Source: Halorubrum ruber (GTDB lineage Archaea; Halobacteriota; Halobacteria; Halobacteriales; Haloferacaceae). Taken from it: 64,000 nucleotides of DNA. Within the stretch, counting starts at the first letter, position 1; the number at the start of each line of letters is the position of its first letter. The stretch is from positions 310,001 to 374,000 of the forward strand of contig NZ_CP073695.1 in NCBI RefSeq assembly GCF_018228765.1. Reading direction: 5' to 3'. A program made the position numbers and the translations under genes. This document shows positions 24,031 to 54,626 of the stretch, piece after piece. The notes below the pieces were generated by a model that worked only from the letters and a program-made list of their open reading frames with translations, made no database searches and was not told the origin of the DNA.

Positions 24031-24396
24031 TCACAGCGACCGGATGAGACGGGCGACGACGACCGCGAGCGTGACGACGGTCCGCCACAGTCGGAGCCGT
24101 TCGAGCCGGTATTCGCGTGCGTCGGGGTCGACCGAGTCGTCGCCCTCGCCGTCCGGTTCGCGGTCGCGTTCGCAGGCCGCGTCACCGTCGGGTCGGTCGG
24201 GCGGCGGGTCGGTGGCTCGGTCCGGTTCCTCCCGAGGCCCCCGGTCGGATGCGTCGCGGTCGGTCCCGTCGTAGCTCGGCGGTCCCTCGCGGTCGGCCGC
24301 GTCGCACTCGGTCAGCTTCGGTTCGGCGTCGGTGTACTCGGTCAGCTTCGGTTCGGCGTCGGTGCGCTCGGTCGCCGGCAGTGGCTCGTCGATCAT
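24031..24396 (-). CDS. Acidic repeat-containing hypothetical protein with C-terminal hydrophobic tail
   Basis: 121 aa, composed largely of Asp, Glu, Pro and Arg. It has a tandem 10-residue repeat TDAEPKLTEY / TDAEPKLTEC near the start and a C-terminal segment LRLWRTVVTLAVVVARLI that could be a short membrane anchor or amphipathic helix. There is no known domain. A TTTATAAAT box near 24440-24448 lies about 47 bp before the ATG, giving a short leader, which supports expression. It could still be a chance frame in GC-rich DNA, but the tail and promoter favour a gene. Confidence 0.5.
   Translation of the reverse strand: MIDEPLPATERTDAEPKLTEYTDAEPKLTECDAADREGPPSYDGTDRDASDRGPREEPDRATDPPPDRPDGDAACERDREPDGEGDDSVDPDAREYRLERLRLWRTVVTLAVVVARLIRSL
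24306..24365. repeat. Two exact 30-bp tandem units
   Basis: The 30-bp unit beginning ACTCGGTCAGCTTCGG occurs twice in a row without mismatch, followed by a decayed third start (GCGCTCGGTCG). It encodes the 10-residue repeat of the acidic protein on the minus strand and keeps its frame. Confidence 0.85.
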
Positions 24397-48783: not shown

Positions 48784-49427
48784 TTTATAAGTGAATGCGG
48801 TGGCGCGTGCCTGCGAGCGGCCGCCGAAGGCGGTCGCGAGCCAGCACGCGCGAGGGACGCGGTGAGCGCTCGGAGAGCGCGAACCGCGAGGCTGGGGAGG
48901 TGTGAGGTGCTGTCGCTGTGCGGGGCGGGGACTCAAAGGGGCAGCCGCGAGGCCGCAGTAGGCGACGTAAGCACTGGAAGGAGCGAACGGAGTGAGCGAC
49001 TGAAGCGCGCAACGAGCGTACTGCGGCCTCGCGGCTGGGGCTTTGGAAGTGTTCGCCGTCGTTCTGCGGTCAATCACGTATCGCCGAGCGGCTGGGGCTT
49101 TGGAAGTGTTCGCCGTCGTTCTGCGGTCAATCACGTATCGCCGAGCGGCTGGGGCTTTGGAAGTGTTCGCCGTCGTTCTGCGGTCAATCACGTATCGCCG
49201 AGCGGCTGGGGCTTTGGAAGTGTTCGCCGTCGTTCTGCGGTCAATCACGTATCGCCGAGCGGCTGGGGCTTTGGAAGTGTTCGCCGTCGTTCTGCGGTCA
49301 ATCACGTATCGCCGAGCGGCTGGGGCTTTGGAAGTGTTCGCCGTCGTTCTGCGGTCAATCACGTATCGCCGAGCGGCTGGGGCTTTGGAGGTGTTTCACC
49401 GGCGATCCACAGTCAGCCATTTATAAG
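48784..49427 (-). repeat. Covarying multi-stem element, copy F, with expanded promoter array
   Basis: Sense strand is minus. The distal promoter box is CTTATAAA (49420-49427). The 57-bp array runs from there down to the body. Stem I is TACTGCGGCCTCGCGGCTG (49019-49037) with CAGCCGCGAGGCCGCAGTA (48942-48960). Stem II is CGCGGT/ACCGCG with inner GCGCTC/GAGCGC. Stem III is GCGCGTGC/GCACGCGC with a cUUCGg-capped tip holding one mismatch. It ends at TTTATAAG (48784-48791). It is the longest copy and fills the gap before hisA. Confidence 0.9.
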
Positions 49428-49429
49428 CA
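49031..49429 (-). repeat. 57-bp tandem array, seven units (part of copy F)
   Basis: GCGGCTGGGG recurs at 49031, 49088, 49145, 49202, 49259, 49316 and 49373, exactly 57 bp apart. Each unit has a start box (CTTCCAAAGCCCCAGCC on the minus strand) and, 27 nt before it, a TATA position that reads GCGATACG in six units and CTTATAAA in the outermost. Six units are identical or nearly so; a decayed eighth lies at about 49433-49460. Confidence 0.95.
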
Positions 49430-49490
49430 AATGACTGCGTCTTTGGAGACGTCCGCCGCGTAACCCTCTGTTTCATCTCGAATCGACCGG

Positions 49491-49520: not shown

Positions 49521-50261
49521 ATGAGCCAGTTCCCCGAGTTCGAGGTGATCCCCGCCGTCGACGTGCAGGACGGCGAGGTCGTCCAGTTGGTCGGCGGCGA
49601 GCGCGGGACGGGCAAGCGCTACGGCGATCCGGTCGCGGCCGCCGAGCGGTGGATCGAGGCGGGCGCCGGCACGCTCCACCTCGTCGACCTCGACGGCGCG
49701 TTCGAGGGCGAGCGCGTCAATGCCGCCGCGATCGAGTCAGTCGTCGAGAGCGTTCCGGACGCGGTCGGCCTCCAGCTCGGCGGCGGCATCCGGACTGCGG
49801 AGGGCGCGCGGGACCTGCTCGACCTGGGGCTCGACCGCGTCATCCTCGGCACCGCGGCGGTCGAGACGCCCGAGATCGTCGCCGAGATCGACGAGACGCA
49901 TCCCGGGGGCGTCGTCGTCAGCCTCGACGCGAAGGACGGCGAGGTCGTCGTCTCGGGCTGGACCGAGGGGACCGGGCTGGACCCGGCCGAGGCCGCGGCC
50001 CGCTACGAGGAGTTGGGCGCGGGCGCCATCCTCTTCACGAACGTCGACGTGGAGGGGCAATTAGAGGGGATCGACCGCGAGGCGGTCGCGAGCGTGGTCG
50101 AGGCCGTGGACATTCCGGTTATCGCCTCCGGCGGGGTGGCGACGGTCGAAGACGTCGTCGACTTAAAAAAGGCCGGCGCGGCCGCCGTCGTCGTCGGCAC
50201 CGCGCTGTACGAGGGCGAGTTCACGCTCCGAGAGGCGCAGAACACGGCTGACGAGATTTAA
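49521..50261 (+). CDS. hisA: ProFAR isomerase (1-(5-phosphoribosyl)-5-[(phosphoribosylamino)methylideneamino]imidazole-4-carboxamide isomerase)
   Basis: 246 aa, a TIM barrel. The N-terminal VIPAVDVQDGEVVQLVGG has the catalytic Asp. The half-barrel motifs are LHLVDLDGAFEG, LQLGGGIRTAEGARDLL, DRVILGTAAVETPE and IASGGVATVEDVVDLKK. It performs the fourth step of histidine synthesis. The next step of the pathway, hisF/hisH, is not in the window. hisB is 500 bp downstream, separated by element G. Confidence 0.95.
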   Translation: MSQFPEFEVIPAVDVQDGEVVQLVGGERGTGKRYGDPVAAAERWIEAGAGTLHLVDLDGAFEGERVNAAAIESVVESVPDAVGLQLGGGIRTAEGARDLLDLGLDRVILGTAAVETPEIVAEIDETHPGGVVVSLDAKDGEVVVSGWTEGTGLDPAEAAARYEELGAGAILFTNVDVEGQLEGIDREAVASVVEAVDIPVIASGGVATVEDVVDLKKAGAAAVVVGTALYEGEFTLREAQNTADEI

Positions 50262-53411: not shown

Positions 53412-54626
53412 TCAGCTCCCGGTGCCCGGCCGCCAGACGCCCTGTCGCCGGTCGAGCCACGCGACCACGACGACGTGGGGGAGCGTCATGGCGGCGATGG
53501 CGACCAGCGACACGGCCAGCAGGTCGCCGGGCGCCGCGACGCCCGCGGGGACGCTCGCGCCGACCGCGGCCACGACGAGAAACCCGCCGAGCGTGAGCGG
53601 CGCGGCGTCGCGGCCGAAGCGGGCGAGCGCCCCGACTGCGTTGCCCGCGGACGCCGCGCTCGCGGCCTCGGGATCGACGAGGACGAGCCGCCCGACGTGT
53701 CGGAGCGCGTGCCACAGCGCGAAGTACACCCCGATCGCGAACACGGGCGCGGCGAGCAGGAACCACGCCCACAGCACCGCGAGTTCGCCGACGTCGCGCC
53801 GCCAGCCGCCCGGGTCACGCCGCCGGCCGTCCGGGTCACGCCGCCGGCCGTCCGGGTCACGCCGCCGGCCGTCCGCGTCGCGCCCGTCCCGGACCCGGCG
53901 GTAACCCAGCCCGACCGACGCCAGCGTCGCCGTCGCCATCCCGACGCCGACCCCGATCCGGACCGCGGGCGCAAAGAGGGGGTCGACCGCGGTCGCGGCC
54001 GCACCGGCGTCGACGAGGAACAGCCCGACGATCCACTCGGCCACCAGCCGGTACTCCTCGGGGTGCGCGAGGAGGGGGACGCCCATCGGGAGGCCGCCGC
54101 GGACGACGAGCGCCAGCCACCGCTCCCCGGAGGTTGGCAGGTGGTCGACGCCGGCGATCGCGAGCGTCGCCACGTCGCCCTGTCCCCAGTGGAGCCACGT
54201 GAGCGCGATGAACCCGACGAACGCCGCGACGGGCGCGGCGAAGAACGCGGCGACGACCGCGCCGCCGAGGACCGCGTACACGACCGAGACGACCGCGATC
54301 GACCGCCGGAGCGACACGCCCGGCGCGCCCCGGAGGGGAACGAGATGGTCGACCGCGCCGTGGGCCATCCCGACGGCGAGGGTGCCGAGCGCGAACGTCG
54401 CGACGCCGAGTTCGACCGGAAACAGGGGGGTCACGGCGCCGATCGGCAGCAGCGCGGCCAGCGCCAGCGCCGGGCGGCGCGCGAACCAGCGGTCGACCCG
54501 TTCGCTCGCGGCGTCGGCCGCCGATTCGGGCCGCGCGTCCGCGGGGGCCGCTCCGGCGTCGCGCCCGCGAGTCTCCGCGGAACCGGACTCGGTCGCCCTC
54601 GCCGACGTCGAGGACGCCTCAGTCAT
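53412..54626 (-). CDS. Beta-carotene 15,15'-dioxygenase, Brp/Blh family
   Basis: 404 aa membrane protein with about eight helices. The iron-binding histidines are in GMAHGAVDHL, WLHWGQGD and WHALRHVGR, with LPHVVVVAWLD near the end. It cleaves beta-carotene to retinal, the cofactor of rhodopsins. Its ATG overlaps the stop region of the lycopene cyclase gene, so the two steps to retinal are coupled. A loop contains a GRRRDPD tandem repeat not expected in the family. No opsin gene lies in the window. Confidence 0.92.
   Translation of the reverse strand: MTEASSTSARATESGSAETRGRDAGAAPADARPESAADAASERVDRWFARRPALALAALLPIGAVTPLFPVELGVATFALGTLAVGMAHGAVDHLVPLRGAPGVSLRRSIAVVSVVYAVLGGAVVAAFFAAPVAAFVGFIALTWLHWGQGDVATLAIAGVDHLPTSGERWLALVVRGGLPMGVPLLAHPEEYRLVAEWIVGLFLVDAGAAATAVDPLFAPAVRIGVGVGMATATLASVGLGYRRVRDGRDADGRRRDPDGRRRDPDGRRRDPGGWRRDVGELAVLWAWFLLAAPVFAIGVYFALWHALRHVGRLVLVDPEAASAASAGNAVGALARFGRDAAPLTLGGFLVVAAVGASVPAGVAAPGDLLAVSLVAIAAMTLPHVVVVAWLDRRQGVWRPGTGS
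53800..53883. repeat. Four 21-bp tandem units inside brp/blh
   Basis: The unit CGCCGGCCGTCCGGGTCACGC occurs at 53821 and 53842 exactly, with diverged units at 53800 and 53863. It encodes GRRRDPD-type repeats in a cytoplasmic loop of the Brp/Blh protein and keeps the frame. Confidence 0.9.

What the first reader, a model, noticed from the sequence alone, without database searches (positions are those of the whole stretch)
49019..49460. 57-bp tandem array of promoter plus start box, with only the outermost TATA intact
Copy F carries seven units exactly 57 bp apart plus a decayed eighth. Each repeats TATA position, 27-nt spacer and start box. Six have GCGATACG at the TATA position; the outer one has CTTATAAA. 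Copies B, E and G have two units with the same 57-bp period, and C has two or three at irregular spacing. So expansion of this unit recurs in the family. It may be slippage, or may tune initiation or create several 5' ends.
Basis: seen in the sequence. Interest (0 to 1): 0.7.

Follow-up and report, generated by a model that had tools for sequence, protein, structure and literature searches.

The report
Variable tandem promoter-module array in Halorubrum
A salt-loving archaeon carries many copies of a hairpin-forming DNA element whose start, a small promoter-like module of about 57 bases, is repeated in tandem a changeable number of times; the array studied here has seven units while its closest sampled relative has two.

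Summary
The array is real. On the minus strand at 49032-49388 lie seven 15-nt boxes exactly 57 bp apart, plus a decayed eighth 58 bp out; the six inner spacers are identical and TATA-less, and only the outermost unit has TTATAAAT.

It is the leading end of a hairpin-forming interspersed element (about 190 hairpin arms in this 3.02-Mb genome); with a strict pattern I found it only in the window's genus (17 of 194 class genomes, 1 of 65 genera).

The unit looks like a promoter module: TATA, an A/T pair at -10 from a predicted start, and the 5' arm of the first hairpin. Unit number differs between species at the same site. At F (beside hisA) the sister species has two units (TATA + GCGATACG), so five were added here or lost there.

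GCGATACG is not random decay: spacers are either TATA or a recurrent CTCGGCNNTACG form. And F is atypical: inner TATAs are usually kept, even in diverged arrays, so tandem promoters seem maintained in the family, whereas F expanded a TATA-less unit.

Transcription is untested, and the transcribed strand is not established. TATA-less unit lengths are nearly all multiples of three, yet the units do not look coding: unexplained.

The parts
49032..49388 (-). Tandem array of copy F: seven 15-nt boxes (CCAAAGCCCCAGCCG) at 49388-49374, 49331-49317, 49274-49260, 49217-49203, 49160-49146, 49103-49089 and 49046-49032, spaced exactly 57 bp; six identical TATA-less spacers between them (CTCGGCGATACG...)
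49419..49426 (-). Outermost TATA box, TTATAAAT, the only one in the array; starts 38 nt before the outermost box
   Evidence: kept in G010, G050, G028, G042
49432..49446 (-). Decayed eighth box (3 mismatches), 58 bp outside the first good box; a similarly decayed outer box is seen at the same site in relatives
48934..49045 (-). First hairpin of the element: innermost box plus extension pairs with the 3' arm CGGCTGCCCCTTTG (48947-48934); CCC/CCC internal loop, covarying stem
48799..48933 (-). Rest of the element body (further hairpins), ending at the conserved far end GGCACGCGCCACCGC
48784..48790 (.). TATA-like TTTATAA just beyond the far end; role unknown
49521..50261 (+). hisA, the neighbour on the outer side of the array; divergent from the predicted promoter

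Best explanation
F is the leading end of one copy of a Halorubrum-wide, hairpin-forming interspersed element. Its basic 57-bp module holds a TATA box, an A/T pair at the -10 position, a predicted start 7-8 nt before the box, and the box, which is the 5' arm of the first hairpin. Once two modules lie in tandem, their identical boxes let slippage or unequal recombination add or remove modules, so unit number changes between species at the same site (shown: number differences, identical units; inferred: the recombination step). In most copies every module keeps its TATA, so elements probably carry several tandem promoters that start the same RNA at different 5' ends (inferred from conservation). 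F is an exception: before this species split from its sister, its inner module already had the recurrent TATA-less form CTCGGCNNTACG, and it is this probably silent module that is now present six times. Predicted result: one promoter, at the outermost TATA, and a transcript with six extra 57-nt repeats before the hairpin, without gain in initiation.
For: Six identical spacers; sister species G010 has two units at the same site, its TATA-less spacer differing at 2 of 42 positions; unit number differs at five window sites among up to five relatives; promoter-like spacing: A/T pair at -17/-16 from the box in 99 of 128 distinct TATA units v 1-3 of 128 at the four neighbouring positions tested; in 25 diverged adjacent pairs TATA 7-mer 89% identical v 62% for the middle 18 nt; distinct 57-bp spacers are TATA 61, TAC form 10, other 5 of 76 here and 70, 17, 9 of 96 elsewhere; box-arm covariation.
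Against: No transcript data. No BRE-like motif before TATA in 49 outermost units. Hairpin mismatches do not favour G.U on the assumed RNA strand; box position 11 favours the other strand. Many arrays are recent copies of one unit (31 of 64 adjacent pairs at 95% identity or more), and conversion between copies could keep TATAs alike. 18 of 67 sampled elements have no TATA before the outermost box. The near-exclusive multiple-of-three lengths of TATA-less units are not explained.
Confidence: 0.6

Rival explanations
1. Neutral tandem-repeat drift: units are duplicated and lost by slippage with no effect on expression; the conserved TATAs reflect recent shared ancestry or gene conversion between copies.
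For: Adjacent units are often identical (31 of 64 pairs at 95% or more here, 23 of 33 elsewhere); TATA and TAC units both expand; F expands a TATA-less unit.
Against: In diverged adjacent pairs the TATA stays at 89% identity while the middle falls to 62%; the -10 pair is sharply positioned.
Confidence: 0.25
2. The element is transcribed from the other strand, so the array lies at the 3' end of the RNA and its TATAs are not promoters of that RNA (they may face outward or mark the RNA's end).
For: C.A over T.G at box/arm position 11 (40 v 1 of 201 copies), which is G.U on the other strand; body hairpins lean the same way, not significantly (36 v 25 distinct contexts, p = 0.2); a TATA-like sequence follows the far end in 46 of 63 copies.
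Against: Totals over all stem positions are balanced (20 v 22 here, 79 v 87 elsewhere); the A/T pair and purine fit a start just before the box in the assumed direction; a start about 27 nt from the far-end TATA would cut into the last stem (inference).
Confidence: 0.2
3. The units are a translated repeat (about 19 residues each) in a small protein.
For: TATA-less unit lengths are multiples of three in 92 of 94 units and in 33 of 34 arrays with a non-57 unit v 11 of 17 TATA arrays (p = 0.004); sense frame box+2 is open in 78 of 92 such units; an in-frame ATG/GTG/TTG near the predicted start is commoner before TATA-less units (19 of 32 v 27 of 81).
Against: Codon-position G+C is unlike hisA except for a third-position excess in the 54-bp subfamily; no conserved start codon; box-to-arm distance is not a multiple of three, so the frame is lost after the array; pN/pS singles out no frame.
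Confidence: 0.05
4. Assembly artefact: the true unit number at F is lower.
For: Six identical 57-bp spacers are longer together than a short read; no reads could be examined.
Against: The genome is one contig of 3,021,820 bases; eight other arrays of five or more boxes exist in the sampled stretches, several with diverged units, and arrays of four to six in other species.
Confidence: 0.05

Closest known systems
Multiple promoters of haloarchaeal rRNA operons (five in H. cutirubrum, three start sites in Hfx. volcanii; passages of PMC4983044)
   Same: Several promoters in series before one structured RNA in a haloarchaeon.
   Different: Here the promoter module includes the 5' hairpin arm, has an exact 57-bp period, varies in number between species at one site, and belongs to a dispersed element with about 190 copies.
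Tandem spacer promoters and enhancer repeats of eukaryotic rDNA (recalled)
   Same: Promoter-bearing units amplified in tandem before the functional start, with number variation and degenerate inner units.
   Different: Archaeal, dispersed, short units, no shown effect on transcription.
Transposase-free mobile repeats of haloarchaea: PATEs, MITEs, SMRs (passages of PMC3119063)
   Same: Short, non-coding, palindrome-rich, many copies per haloarchaeal genome.
   Different: No clean empty site or target duplication found here; copies sit at the same sites in several species; a promoter-like tandem array is part of the element.

Membership tests
Variable-number tandem repeat | Head-to-tail units with near-identical sequence | tested here: met
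Variable-number tandem repeat | Unit number differs between related genomes at the same site | tested here: met
   (between species; strains of one species were not available)
Tandem promoters of the haloarchaeal type | TATA and -10 A/T pair at promoter spacing in each unit | tested here: inconclusive
   Met in most family units; in F met only by the outermost unit for TATA; BRE not seen in 49 units
Tandem promoters of the haloarchaeal type | Mapped transcription starts | not testable with these tools
   No transcript data for this genome
PATE / MITE / IS605-related mobile repeat | Clean empty sites or target duplications in relatives | tested here: inconclusive
   sites without the element have diverged flanks; E lost its first hairpin in G024
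PATE / MITE / IS605-related mobile repeat | Ends shared with a transposon | not tested
   No transposon ends were compared
Known structured RNA family | Match to an Rfam model | tested here: not met
Protein-coding tandem repeat | Codon-position composition of haloarchaeal genes | tested here: not met
   (the 54-bp subfamily alone shows a third-position excess)

The most novel reading that the evidence does not exclude
Halorubrum carries a genome-wide, evolvable dosage system: close to two hundred copies of one structured RNA element, each with its own number of tandem promoter modules, where modules can be gained, lost, or switched into a conserved silent form (CTCGGCNNTACG) that keeps the RNA's 5' arm but removes initiation. 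F would be an array that grew in the silent form, lengthening the leader without adding starts.
Probability: 0.2. Interest if true: 0.78.

Novelty: new variant of a known kind. Interest (0 to 1): 0.5.

Why it matters
If the modules work as promoters, one archaeal genus offers many natural promoter-number variants of one RNA element at matched genome sites, which would let one ask directly how promoter copy number and a silent module form evolve. The element has no Rfam match, and no paper listed by seven searches was about it, judged from titles and abstract starts. F itself is the less functional kind of array, which lowers its own interest.

Tried and rejected
Translated repeats: suggested by unit lengths in multiples of three and one open sense frame, rejected on codon-position G+C, lack of a conserved start and a box-to-arm distance that is not a multiple of three. 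Pairwise pN/pS over six frames did not single out one frame (lowest 0.56 on the antisense strand, 0.61 in the sense frame). Upstream open length and in-frame start codons were looked at; a start codon is commoner before a TATA-less unit (19 of 32) than before a TATA unit (27 of 81), but GTG there is also the family consensus, so this is not taken as evidence.

Strand of the structure: G.U against A.C counts and folding z-scores on 32 of 63 copies (every second one) did not settle it. The whole-element alignment of 63 copies was too gappy (701 columns) for a useful consensus fold.

Alternative core promoter element at the TAC motif: rejected, because the motif keeps its place relative to the box before it, not to the box after it, when unit length changes.

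Mobile element with target duplication: no clean empty site found. Plasmid and phage records: three partial plasmid matches to the body, none in phages. A tblastn of the 194-aa minus-strand frame hit 12 plasmid records, all Xanthomonas (44-46% identity in the eight listed); I take this as chance similarity of repetitive sequence and did not follow it.

Full report
WHAT IS THERE. The window is part of a 3,021,820-base single-contig genome (310001-374000). The array of copy F is confirmed: Tandem Repeats Finder gives 49031-49395, period 57, 99% matches; on the minus strand there are seven boxes CCAAAGCCCCAGCCG at exact 57-bp spacing. The six spacers between them are identical. The outermost unit has TTATAAAT, 49426-49419. 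The decayed eighth box is 58 bp out; copy C is regular (57, 57, third box decayed), and G's second box is a decayed one at 57 bp.

THE FAMILY. In this genome the box (CCAAAGCCCCAGYCG, up to 1 mismatch) occurs 350 times against 4 for the reversed control, and the matching 3' arm (CGRCTGCCCCTTTGA) 190 times against 2, about 1.8 boxes per arm. Box and arm are the two sides of a hairpin with a conserved CCC/CCC internal loop. The variable base of the innermost box covaries with its partner: 46 C-G and 14 T-A against 8 C-A and 0 T-G of 68 copies here; 72, 28, 32 and 1 of 133 copies in other species. The extension of the stem covaries too. The full exact hairpin pattern was found in 17 of 194 genomes of the class and in 1 of 65 genera (a strict pattern, so diverged forms are missed: G015 and G046 of the same genus score zero there yet carry boxes). 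Tandem box pairs occur in 44 of 52 genomes of the genus.

UNIT NUMBER CHANGES AT FIXED SITES. hisA (49521-50261) flanks F. The hisA search found a match in 38 of 39 genomes and 30 loci were fetched. Besides this genome's own, six of the other 29 hold boxes in the matching place: G010 two, G050 two, G028 two, G042 two (with 2 and 1 mismatches), G024 one, G015 three at 63 bp; the rest have none there, and at least two are cut short (L158, L170). A decayed outer box is also visible in G010, G050, G028 and G024. A hisA tree of 28 genomes makes G010 the sister of this genome (98/96). G010's array is one TATA unit followed by one GCGATACG unit whose spacer differs from F's at 2 of 42 positions. So the TATA-less state predates the split, and the difference of five units arose after it, as gain here or loss there; the six identical spacers favour gain. 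At four other window sites (D, E, G, H), compared in up to five relatives (some sites were not recovered in some species), unit number also differs; E has five all-TATA boxes in G042 and two here.

WHAT A UNIT IS. The consensus of 76 distinct inner 57-bp spacers is CTCGcTTATAAATaGCTGATtGCGGATCGACGGCGAACACCt, followed by the box. Three things sit at promoter spacing: TATA; an A/T pair at -17/-16 from the box, present in 99 of 128 distinct TATA units against 1 to 3 of 128 at the four neighbouring positions tested; and a purine 7-8 nt before the box, about 27 nt from the TATA centre. The haloarchaeal rules used for comparison (TATA 'TTWT', -10 'WW', BRE 'CGAAA') are from passages of PMC4983044; the 27-nt distance is recalled. 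No BRE-like motif was seen in 49 outermost units, and only 25 of these 49 have the -10 pair. The unit is therefore promoter-like, with the 5' hairpin arm attached.

GCGATACG IS NOT A RANDOM RUIN. Among distinct 57-bp inner units, 61 of 76 here and 70 of 96 in the other species have TATA, 10 and 17 have the TAC form (CTCGGCNNTACG), and only 5 and 9 are anything else, several of them near TATA. The 51- and 54-bp units are nearly all of the TAC form and mostly lack the -10 pair (1 of 7 and 4 of 20), so they do not look like promoters; F's own spacers keep A/T at that place. The motif stays at a fixed distance from the box before it while its distance to the next box changes with unit length, so it reads as an extension of the box. 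Its role is unknown.

INNER TATAS ARE USUALLY KEPT. In the sampled stretches of this genome (67 elements, enriched for arrays), eight arrays other than F have five or more boxes, and all their inner units but one have TATA. In 25 diverged adjacent pairs the middle 18 nt is 62% identical and the TATA 7-mer 89%. This is what one expects if more than one promoter per element is useful, and it is the opposite of what F shows. Counter-evidence: many arrays are recent copies of one unit (31 of 64 adjacent pairs at 95% or more), and conversion between elements could also keep TATAs alike.

MECHANISM. Most likely, tandem modules arise and are lost by slippage or unequal recombination through the identical boxes; where modules keep TATA they add start points for the same RNA; where the module is of the TAC form, as in F, growth only lengthens the leader. 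Shown: units, spacing, number differences, two states, conservation. Inferred: recombination, transcription, start sites, effect.

OPEN POINTS AGAINST THIS READING. Hairpin mismatches do not show the G.U excess expected of the assumed RNA strand: stem totals are balanced (20 v 22 here, 79 v 87 elsewhere), box position 11 has 40 C.A against 1 T.G, and body hairpins have 36 A.C against 25 G.U distinct contexts, p = 0.2. Folding z-scores are alike for both strands (about -5, 32 of 63 copies). A TATA-like sequence also stands near the far end in 46 of 63 copies. So the transcribed strand is not established. TATA-less unit lengths are nearly all multiples of three (92 of 94 units; 33 of 34 arrays with a non-57 unit v 11 of 17 TATA arrays, p = 0.004, not corrected for shared ancestry). 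Codon composition does not support coding (a third-position G+C excess in the 54-bp subfamily alone), so I leave this unexplained.

KNOWN OR NEW. Rfam has no match. Seven library searches listed no paper that is about this element, judged from titles and abstract starts; I read only passages of PMC10927574, PMC4983044 and PMC3119063. Closest in behaviour are the multiple promoters of haloarchaeal rRNA operons; closest in appearance are the transposase-free mobile repeats of Haloquadratum. I rate it a new variant of a known kind: a variable-number tandem promoter-like module inside a dispersed archaeal hairpin element.

Noticed in passing
Related loci L031-L150 and own-genome arrays: TATA-less units have lengths 48, 51, 54, 57, 60, 63 or 66, almost all multiples of three, while TATA units also show 56 and 58; no coding signal explains it.
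   Followed up: partly
G000:C1:543083 and 1072338 (L216, L217): Own-genome arrays with 66- and 69-bp spacing; boxes of the form CCGAAGCCCC and arms ending CTTCGA are listed at these places, a compensatory change in the hairpin.
   Followed up: no
L229-L230 (G024), site of copy E: The element persists without its first hairpin: the stretch from the box to the 3' arm is deleted.
   Followed up: no
48784-48790 and the far ends of the other copies: A TATA-like sequence stands near the far end of the element in 46 of 63 own-genome copies; role unknown.
   Followed up: partly
53793-53884 and 24304-24373: Other tandem repeats in the window with periods of 21 and 30 bp, lengths that would fit coding sequence.
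   Followed up: no
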